From positions 7,312,128 through 7,376,127 of the forward strand of contig NC_088647.1 of NCBI RefSeq assembly GCF_964019385.1: DNA of 64,000 nucleotides, given 5' to 3'. The position numbers and the translations under genes were made by a program. The notes below the pieces were generated by a model. That model made no database searches, had not been told where the DNA came from, and saw only the letters and a list, made by a program, of their open reading frames with translations. Positions 17,211 to 43,209 of the stretch are shown one piece after another (within the stretch, counting starts at the first letter, position 1; every line of letters starts with the position of its first letter). The stretch is from Sycon ciliatum (taxonomy: Eukaryota > Porifera > Calcarea > Leucosolenida > Sycettidae).

Positions 17211-20200
17211 CTAGCCAGCACTTCGCGCTTCACGGACATCGGTCTTCAGCTTGTCGATGGTGGAGTGCAGTTCCACTATTGTGCTCAAGATGGTTCCCAG
17301 CACATCCCTGTATTGATGCAGGAGTGCATCCACATAACGCACGAGCGTACACACCACACAACCAGAGACCCGAATGCACAAACACATGTATGCACACGCA
17401 TCCCCACATACACGCATGCAAACACACATACATGTGCGCAAACACACACGCAAACGAACATTCACGCATGCACAAGCACGCACCCGTATGCACACAAATG
17501 TACACACACACACACACCCAGACCCACACCAGCACAAGGATTATACGCAAGAAGGCCAAAAAAATTATCAGCGTCTTCATGGTGTTTGTGCTCCCAGGTA
17601 TCCAAACACATCATCTGTCAAATCTTCTTATAGACAGTTGGTGTGAGAAACTTTAGTTAGACATACCTTGCAAGCAAAATGGAATTAAAATATAGCTGAT
17701 TAGGGGTCTGTTTTCCAGGTTCTTATGAGTGGAATTTCCCTGATGATTAGCAGGAGGGGGTCTGTGAACTAGCTTCACTCCTCCTCTCTTCAGCCTATCC
17801 TCTAACAAACATGTGTTCAATATGAACTGAGACTTCATCTAGGGTTCCCAGCCTATTGACACTGTCTTAGTATAATCAAATAACCCAGGCTACTCAACTT
17901 ACCTCTGCTTCTGAAGGCATGTGACCTGCAGTGTAGTTTGATCGCTTTGACTCTCCATCCTCTCAATGATCTGCCGAAAGAATTTGAAAACAAGCAAACA
18001 AAAGGAAACACTGGGGGCTCAATAGCCTGGACTTTGGTGTTATTTCTGCGAGAGCTGCAGAAAATTTCAAAAGGTTAAGTGTGAACAAAACCGTACACAA
18101 CAGTCACGGAGTGCAGAGATGCGACTCGAGTCAGGAGGCATTGGAAAAGCATGATAGATTCAAAGTACTAGTATTTGTCCCACCCTTGACTGCGTCAGGC
18201 GAAATAGCACATCATAGTACATTCGAGATCAGCGGGAAGAAGATGACGACGTCCACTAATTTAGTATCTGTGCACACGAATCTGCTGTGTGTGTTACTCT
18301 GTGTGTCAGCTATGGCATCATCGCCTGTGGTTCCATGCCTAGCATGTACGTCTGAACCATCCTGCAGAGTTTGAATGACGTAGGTTGAGCGATCGCTCCG
18401 CGAAACATACTTTTTGAAATTCTATTCATAGTATATCTTCCACCATTGAAATTTCGAATTTCTTCGAATTTTTTGCTGAGAGGGGTGGCTTGCAACCTCG
18501 ATATGGCTTGTTCCAGGCATGCTTTGGAGCCATCGCCTGTTGAAACAGTGGCGGGAAGCTGCCCTGCAACTGTTCCAACAGGAAATTAATCGATCCGAGA
18601 AAGCGCGAGTCCGCGAATCTCGGTTGAATATTGAGTATTTCAAGCCTTTTCACGACGAAGATGGAGTTCTTTTTGGAGATGGACATCGCGGCAAAGGACA
18701 TGGTGTCCGACTTCTGGCGTCTGGTGAAGCCAGGGATCATTTGTCCAGTCAGGTCGGCAGCCTAACCGTCGGTAAGCTTGTGTTTGGATCCCGTTCTGCT
18801 CGATGTGGTAGATCACAAACAATTTGATATCGCACAAATTGATCTCAGCATCGTGCGTACGGTATTTTACATTCAGAAAATCCCAAAGTGTCTCTGTGTG
18901 GCCGTCCTATGCCACGAGAAACTCCAATCAGGCTCCTATGTCCTCTGCCTTCGTGATTGAATGTCCGCTTCGTTTGAACAACGAACACAACAATCGAGGA
19001 CGGCTTTGCAATGAAAAATACAGCTATACTGGAGCTGAAAAAAAGAAGAAAAAACGTGCTCAGGATGAGACTCGAGTACATGCATACTCTCCCGGCAGGT
19101 GAAACGCAAATTTTTGTGAAAAATGCGTGTCGCCGACTGACCGGTAATTTCGCCTGACGGCTTGGCACCAGATGTCTTCTAACAGGCGTAAGCGTCTTTT
19201 CCCCTTTCCATTTTTTCTTGAAGTAATGATTATTTCTTGAAGTAATGATTATTTCTTGAAGTAATGATTATTTCTTGAAGTAATGATTATTCGGACAATG
19301 TATACCCGTGTATTTCGATGGAACACACACCTACACCCCCCCCCCCCTCCCCACACACCTACACCCCCCCCCCCCCACACCTACACCCCCCCCCCCCCAC
19401 ACACCTACACCCCCCCACACACCTACACCCCCCCCCACACACACCTACACCCCCCCCCCCCCCACACACACCTACACCCCCCCCCCCCACACACACCTAC
19501 CCCCCCCCCCACACACACCTACACCCCCCCCCCCCACACCTACACCCCCCCACACCTACACCCCCCCCCCCCTCCCCACACACCTACACCCCCCCCCCAC
19601 ACCTACACCCCCCCCACACACCTACACCCCCCCCCACACACACCTACACCCCCCCCCCCCCCCACACACACCTACACCCCCCCCCCCACACACACCTACC
19701 CCCCCCCCACACACACCTACACCCCCCCCCCCCCACACCTACACCCCCCCACACCTACACCCCCCCACACCTACACCCCCCCCCCCCCCCCACACACCTA
19801 CACCTACACCCCCCCCCACACCTACACCCCCCCCCCCACACCTACACCCCCCCCCCCACACCTACACCCCCCCCCACACCTACCCCCCACACACCTACAC
19901 CCCACACCTACCCCCACACACCTACACCCCCCCCACACCTACACCCCTACACCCCTCCCCTCACACACACACACACACCTACACACATACACCCCCCCCC
20001 CCCCACACACACCTACACCCCCCCCCCCCCCACCACACACACCTACACCTCCCCCCCCCCCCACCACACACACCTACACCCCCCCCCCCCAACACACACA
20101 CACCTACACCCCCCCCCCCCCACACACACACCTACACCCCCCCCCCCCCACCACCACCACCACACACACCTACACCCCTCCCCTCACACACACACACACA

Positions 20201-43209: not shown

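What the first reader, a model, noticed from the sequence alone, without database searches (positions are those of the whole stretch)
17211..43209. Complete 19-exon TRPV-like channel recovered from splice phase alone
Nineteen exons over 26 kb join into an open frame of 869 codons with every phase matched, from a start Met to a stop. Ankyrin repeats, S1-S6 and a TRPV-style S4-S5 linker appear in the right order and spacing. The gene is invisible as a long reading frame because no exon exceeds 260 bp.
Basis: partly seen in the sequence, partly recalled or inferred. Interest (0 to 1): 0.72.

Follow-up and report, generated by a model that had tools for sequence, protein, structure and literature searches.

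The report
Divergent TRP channel gene, 19 exons
A real but heavily interrupted animal gene that appears to encode an ion-channel subunit of the TRP sensory family; it resembles the TRPA and TRPV branches about equally, lacks the usual TRP gate residues, and so looks like an unusual relative rather than an ordinary TRPV channel.

Summary
The gene is there. The unguided chain scores 97.1, against at most 34.0 in 12 shuffles. The product has an ankyrin block (Ank_2, E 2.7e-6), six hydrophobic segments and matches the TRP model TIGR00870 (E 5.2e-8; reversed none), but not Pfam Ion_trans. "TRPV" is not established: pairwise z is 11.2 to TRPA1, 10.3 to fly Inactive, 6.5 to TRPV1. S6 reads T-x-F-L-A, not N-x-L-I-A, and the TRP-helix Trp is Leu. 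The genome has a separate TRPA1 and five S6 exons matching TRPV1, all canonical there. Best reading: a divergent member of the TRPA/TRPV group, possibly an undescribed lineage. Paralogs, orthologs and transcripts could not be examined.

The parts
43125..43209 (-). exon 1, start Met; N-terminus, contested
   Evidence: chosen by the unguided finder; three of six anchored runs start upstream
40960..41088 (-). exon 2; N-terminus, donor uncertain
   Evidence: alternative donor at 41027
37015..37157 (-). exon 3; N-terminus, acceptor uncertain
   Evidence: alternative 37123; 5 open boundary variants
35652..35840 (-). exon 4; upstream of the ankyrin repeats
   Evidence: codon score 10.9 in frame
34141..34293 (-). 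exon 5; ankyrin repeat
   Evidence: Pfam Ank_2 E 2.7e-6 over residues 187-266
33008..33076 (-). exon 6; ankyrin repeat
   Evidence: same Ank_2 stretch
32268..32333 (-). exon 7; end of ankyrin block, boundaries uncertain
   Evidence: better-scoring sites 32340/32194 also keep the product open
31832..31996 (-). exon 8; linker between ankyrin block and membrane part, acceptor uncertain
   Evidence: better-scoring variants 31984, 31966
31126..31199 (-). exon 9; pre-S1 helix with conserved Trp (NKWHAYG)
   Evidence: aligns with W426 of rat TRPV1 in all four alignments
30246..30431 (-). exon 10; S1 and S2
   Evidence: hydropathy; TIGR00870 match
26955..27137 (-). exon 11; S3 and S4
   Evidence: hydropathy
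26236..26387 (-). exon 12; S4-S5 linker and S5, start uncertain
   Evidence: Gly and Phe of the TRP fingerprint; six anchored runs start it at 26435
24767..24902 (-). exon 13; outer pore, pore helix and filter
   Evidence: TIGR00870 stretch runs through it
23796..23985 (-). exon 14; S6 and post-S6 helix, lacking canonical N, L, I and TRP-helix W
23183..23246 (-). exon 15; tail
   Evidence: found by eye from phase (sequence); GT/AG but weak sites -0.1/-0.1; in no finder run
21699..21877 (-). exon 16; tail
   Evidence: codon score 8.9, donor 5.8
20718..20975 (-). exon 17; tail, longest exon
   Evidence: codon score 8.5
17903..17970 (-). exon 18; tail, contested
   Evidence: unguided run; donor 5.3; anchored runs end at 18426 instead
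17211..17307 (-). exon 19; end of tail and stop, contested
   Evidence: unguided run; anchored runs end at 18426 instead

Best explanation
A single protein-coding gene for a TRP-type channel subunit of the TRPA/TRPV group, strongly diverged. Shown: coherent spliced frame, ankyrin block, six membrane segments in the TRP arrangement, remote but significant match to the TRP family. Inferred: four subunits assemble around the S5-pore-S6 segments; ankyrin repeats, pre-S1 Trp helix and S4-S5 linker pass a chemical, thermal or mechanical stimulus to the S6 gate; the long tail helps assembly. Because the S6 Asn motif and the TRP-helix Trp are replaced, the gate is probably coupled differently from TRPV1, and the subunit may need a partner TRP to make a working channel.
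For: Unguided chain score and controls; Ank_2; TIGR00870 E 1.7e-7 and 5.2e-8, halves collinear, reversed none; fly Inactive as the one PDB sequence found with the membrane part; z 11.2 TRPA1, 10.3 Inactive fragment, 6.5 TRPV1, at most 0.6 for five other Ion_trans ORFs of the genome; ungapped Gly...Phe S4-S5/S5 match.
Against: No Pfam Ion_trans hit even at E 10; TIGR00870 31 bits, far under its 498.75 cut-off, and the S5-S6 half no better than an unrelated family; pore/S6 half weak against TRPV1 (z 2.5) and TRPA1 (3.4) and 1.8 or less against five of six own-genome TRP-like S6 exons, 3.4 for the sixth; Nanchung fragment z 0.6, TRPC5 0.9; 9 of 300 shuffles of the tail give as good a heptad. An extra marginal hydrophobic window lies at residues 136-154. 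No transcript, ortholog or paralog was available, so a decaying gene is not excluded.
Confidence: 0.75

Rival explanations
1. A true TRPV channel (Nanchung/Inactive or TRPVL-like) that has drifted fast.
For: The one PDB sequence found is Inactive, E 0.039; z 10.3 to it; Phe at the rTRPV1-678 position and loss of the TRP-helix Trp as in the TRPVL row of Table 1 of PMC9242649.
Against: TRPA1 scores higher; Nanchung fragment z 0.6; the three TRPV pairs tested reach z 15.9-25.8; S6 N, L, I and TRP-helix W absent; S6 exons matching TRPV1 exist elsewhere in the genome and keep the motif.
Confidence: 0.25
2. A diverged TRPA-type channel (TRPA1-like).
For: Highest pairwise score, mostly pre-S1 to S5 (z 10.4) with KWxAYG shared.
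Against: Only about two clear ankyrin repeats (more upstream not seen, but the scan was insensitive); a separate TRPA1 pore/S6 exon is present in the genome; TRPA1 S6 N-L-I-G absent; z no higher than TRPV1 to TRPA1 (11.4).
Confidence: 0.25
3. A decaying or non-functional TRP copy whose motif losses are relaxation, not adaptation.
For: Loss of highly conserved TRP positions; weak sites at exon 15 and negative codon scores in 6 of 19 exons.
Against: A chain of 861 open codons over 18 introns, chosen frame best of three in 19 of 19 exons, though the model was chosen to be open.
Confidence: 0.12
4. Chance chain of open exons, no gene.
For: Splice chaining is flexible: 37 single-exon variants stay open.
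Against: Score 97.1 against at most 34.0 in 12 shuffles; independent domain matches in order.
Confidence: 0.03

Closest known systems
TRPA1 (human, and the genome's own pore/S6 exon L039)
   Same: Membrane part pairwise z 11.2; KWxAYG pre-S1
   Different: S6 lacks N-L-I-G; about two clear ankyrin repeats; the own TRPA1 exon is 42.6% identical to the human one while this gene scores z 0.9 against it
Insect TRPV Inactive/Nanchung; rat TRPV1
   Same: Inactive is the one PDB sequence found, z 10.3; S4-S5/S5 ungapped with TRPV1
   Different: TRPV S6 and TRP-helix residues absent; Nanchung fragment z 0.6
TRPVL (PMC9242649: cnidarians and annelids)
   Same: By the published table only: W, G, aromatic at 591, F at 638, Phe at 678 and A at 680 shared
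   Different: TRPVL keeps Asn 676 and Ile 679; no TRPVL sequence was available to compare

Membership tests
TRP superfamily | Six membrane segments with pore loop between S5 and S6 | tested here: met
   Hydropathy peaks in order S1-S6, plus a marginal one at 136-154; pore loop inferred from alignment
TRP superfamily | Significant match to a TRP profile | tested here: met
   TIGR00870 E 5.2e-8, reversed none; far below the curated cut-off
TRP superfamily | 12-residue fingerprint (7-11 in group I; 95% of TRPs have at least 9) | tested here: inconclusive
   6 of 12 in three alignments, 5 in a fourth. The two S1 positions are unreliable: the same alignments also miss them in TRPC5 (and one in TRPA1) against the published table, so up to 8 is possible. 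Non-TRP channels in that table reach 8, so the count alone decides nothing
TRPV | S6 N-x-L-I-A and TRP-helix Trp | tested here: not met
   T-x-F-L-A and Leu in all four alignments
TRPV | Six ankyrin repeats (recalled) | tested here: inconclusive
   One Ank_2 stretch, about two clear repeats
TRPV | Groups with TRPV in a tree | not tested
   Too few reference sequences; pairwise scores favour TRPA1 slightly
TRPA | Long N-terminal ankyrin array (recalled) | tested here: inconclusive
   A home-made model found only the exon-5 repeat, which was in its own seed, and missed the exon-6 repeat: too insensitive to exclude more
TRPA | S6 N-L-I-G | tested here: not met
TRPVL | Sequence similarity to TRPVL proteins | not testable with these tools
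   I had no TRPVL sequence

The most novel reading that the evidence does not exclude
Founding member of an undescribed TRP lineage beside TRPA and TRPV, with the S6 Asn motif and TRP-helix Trp lost, gated or assembled in a new way and coexisting with ordinary TRPA1 and TRPV-like genes in the same animal.
Probability: 0.3. Interest if true: 0.55.

Novelty: new variant of a known kind. Interest (0 to 1): 0.35.

Why it matters
Domain annotation would miss it: no Ion_trans hit and no exon over 258 bp. If orthologs keep the same replacements, it would show that a TRP-fold channel can work without gate and TRP-helix residues that are nearly invariant in other TRPs, and would make that testable by electrophysiology. 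If it has no orthologs it is an ordinary divergent or decaying copy.

Tried and rejected
The draft with spurious small exons gave no ankyrin or Ion_trans match, and its membrane part no PDB match; corrected. A long exon 7 (32333-32194), which by eye looked like the TRPV linker, was dropped because its phase fits no acceptor of exon 8 that I could see (sequence). Small exons between S2 and S3 in some runs were rejected: direct joining is in phase. Tandem paralogs: tblastn over about 190 kb outside the window (20 loci L014-L033) gave nothing better than E 3. The organism was not identified. Structure prediction was not asked for: its rule admits proteins the DNA gives letter for letter, which a spliced product is not. 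A tree was not built.

Literature: five searches; passages of PMC12503276 and PMC11526382, passages and section 6 of PMC9242649. I did not search print for this gene itself.

Full report
WHAT WAS CLAIMED. Nineteen minus-strand exons from 43209 to 17211 joining into an 869-codon TRPV-like channel.

IS IT THERE. The window is G000:C5:7312128-7376127 of an unnamed 538-Mb genome in 313 contigs. I wrote a simple exon-chaining gene finder with recalled splice-site weights and codon usage trained on 5454 codons from seven long ORFs at Ion_trans places of the same genome. On the minus strand it started at 43209 and stopped at 17211 without being told either. Its score, 97.1, compares with 12.4 on the plus strand, 8.3 to 16.9 in three other stretches (7.5 to 30 kb) and 5.4 to 34.0 in 12 first-order Markov shuffles. 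Extending the unguided search to 64000 gave the same score and ends at the default penalty; higher exon penalties kept the start and gave 13 exons ending at 17211 or 12 ending at 18426.

THE MODEL. I assembled 19 exons by hand from these runs, adding exon 15 by eye because exon 16 needs its phase: 2586 nt, 861 residues, all introns GT/AG. No run gave exactly this chain. All six anchored runs (four, two) end at 18426 and start exon 12 at 26435; three of the six begin upstream of 43209. I kept 17211 because the unguided run chose it and because its exons continue the charged tail; that is judgement. Of 37 open single-exon variants, one of exon 7, two of exon 8 and one of exon 12 have better splice scores than the choice here. 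Exons 10, 11, 13 and 14 are the same in all seven runs printed in full. The in-frame codon score is the best of three frames in 19 of 19 exons but negative in 6.

WHAT IT ENCODES. In residues 1-640 Pfam finds ankyrin models only (Ank_2 E 2.7e-6 over 187-266). NCBIfam finds TIGR00870, TRP calcium channel, at E 1.7e-7 and 5.2e-8 for the membrane part alone; S1-S4 and S5-S6 match collinear parts separately (E 0.0042 and 0.03; an unrelated flagellar family scores 0.031 on the latter), and the reversed sequence matches nothing. In the PDB, phmmer with the membrane part finds one distinct sequence up to E 10: Drosophila Inactive, a TRPV, E 0.039 (species recalled); with the ankyrin block included, ankyrin proteins come first and Inactive is at 0.077. 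Hydropathy gives six strong segments in the expected order and a marginal one at 136-154.

WHICH TRP. Smith-Waterman z-scores over 500 shuffles: TRPA1 11.2, Inactive fragment 10.3, TRPV1 6.5, TRPC5 0.9, Nanchung fragment 0.6; five other Ion_trans ORFs of the genome at most 0.6 over 300 shuffles. For scale: TRPV1-TRPA1 11.4; the three TRPV pairs 15.9 to 25.8; TRPV1-TRPC5 19.9; but TRPA1-Inactive only 2.6 and TRPA1-TRPC5 0.6. Accepted TRPs can thus score near zero against each other, so a low z does not exclude kinship and these scores cannot replace a tree. Most of the signal lies from the pre-S1 Trp to the end of S5 (TRPA1 10.4, Inactive 7.6, TRPV1 2.7); the pore-S6 half is weak (TRPA1 3.4, TRPV1 2.5). 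The gene belongs near TRPA and TRPV, but no test here puts it inside either.

FINGERPRINT. PMC9242649 (section 6 read) lists 12 residues nearly invariant in TRPs. In three of four MAFFT alignments this protein has W, G, three aromatics and A, 6 of 12; in the fourth 5. My alignments misplace the two S1 positions of TRPC5 and one of TRPA1, and also miss the TRPA1 pore Phe, so these positions are unreliable and the count could be up to 8. The table gives 7 for TRPVL and TRPS, 6 for PKD2, and up to 8 for non-TRP channels. The firmer point is local: S6 reads T-x-F-L-A where most TRPs have N-x-L-I-A, and the TRP-helix Trp is Leu, in all four alignments. The filter Gly is not clearly kept; two alignments of the pore loop differ, so I make no claim on selectivity.

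SAME-GENOME CONTROL. Of the 40 Ion_trans places I fetched 11 of the weaker ones as short pieces. By eye six are TRP-like pore/S6 exons; the other five look like IP3-receptor and two-pore-channel pieces (names recalled). All six keep N-x-L-[IV]-[AG] and all six match Ion_trans (five over the cut-off, L042 at E 0.0012), while this gene's pore/S6 exons do not. L039 is TRPA1 (42.6% to human, E 1.3e-19); L034, L035, L036, L038 and L042 match TRPV1 (E 1.9e-5 to 1.4e-9, each searched alone; z 11.0-17.1). Whether all five are TRPV was not tested: TRPC was not compared. L034-L036 lie in a cluster at C5:1.15-1.26 Mb. Against the six S6 exons this gene scores z -0.5 to 3.4. The set was picked by Ion_trans hits, so it cannot show how many other unusual TRPs the genome holds.

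MECHANISM. Inferred from family knowledge: a tetramer with a central S5-pore-S6 cation pathway, cytosolic ankyrin block and a long tail. The tail is charged and poor in proline (3 of 221), but 9 of 300 shuffles reach its best heptad, so a coiled coil is a guess. The replaced gate and TRP-helix residues suggest an altered gate or a partner-dependent subunit; neither is shown.

NOVELTY. A new variant of a known kind. Whether it is a new subfamily depends on orthologs, which I could not search: the genome search did not answer in 25 tries, and no general database of animal proteins was at hand.

Noticed in passing
24417-24766: A 16-bp minisatellite (21.7 copies) begins exactly at the first intron base after the pore exon; 21 further copies of GTGAGT follow the true donor, each weaker by my weights (0.9 against 3.3), as if the 5' splice site had been amplified.
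   Followed up: partly
21883-22421, 27194-27395, 34327-34531: Long CA/GT arrays end 5, 56 and 33 bases upstream of the acceptors of exons 16, 11 and 5.
   Followed up: partly
5489-8638: A 20-bp repeat in 157 copies, open in several frames on both strands; probably not coding.
   Followed up: no
53221-53706: Plus-strand ORF end that by eye resembles the end of a retrotransposon reverse transcriptase.
   Followed up: no
60831-62814: Minus-strand ORFs that by eye resemble fibronectin-III and sushi domain exons of another gene.
   Followed up: no
L034-L036, L046-L048: Three S6 exons matching TRPV1 lie close together at C5:1.15-1.26 Mb in the same genome; upstream of one a TRPV-like pre-S1 and S1 can be read by eye.
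   Followed up: partly
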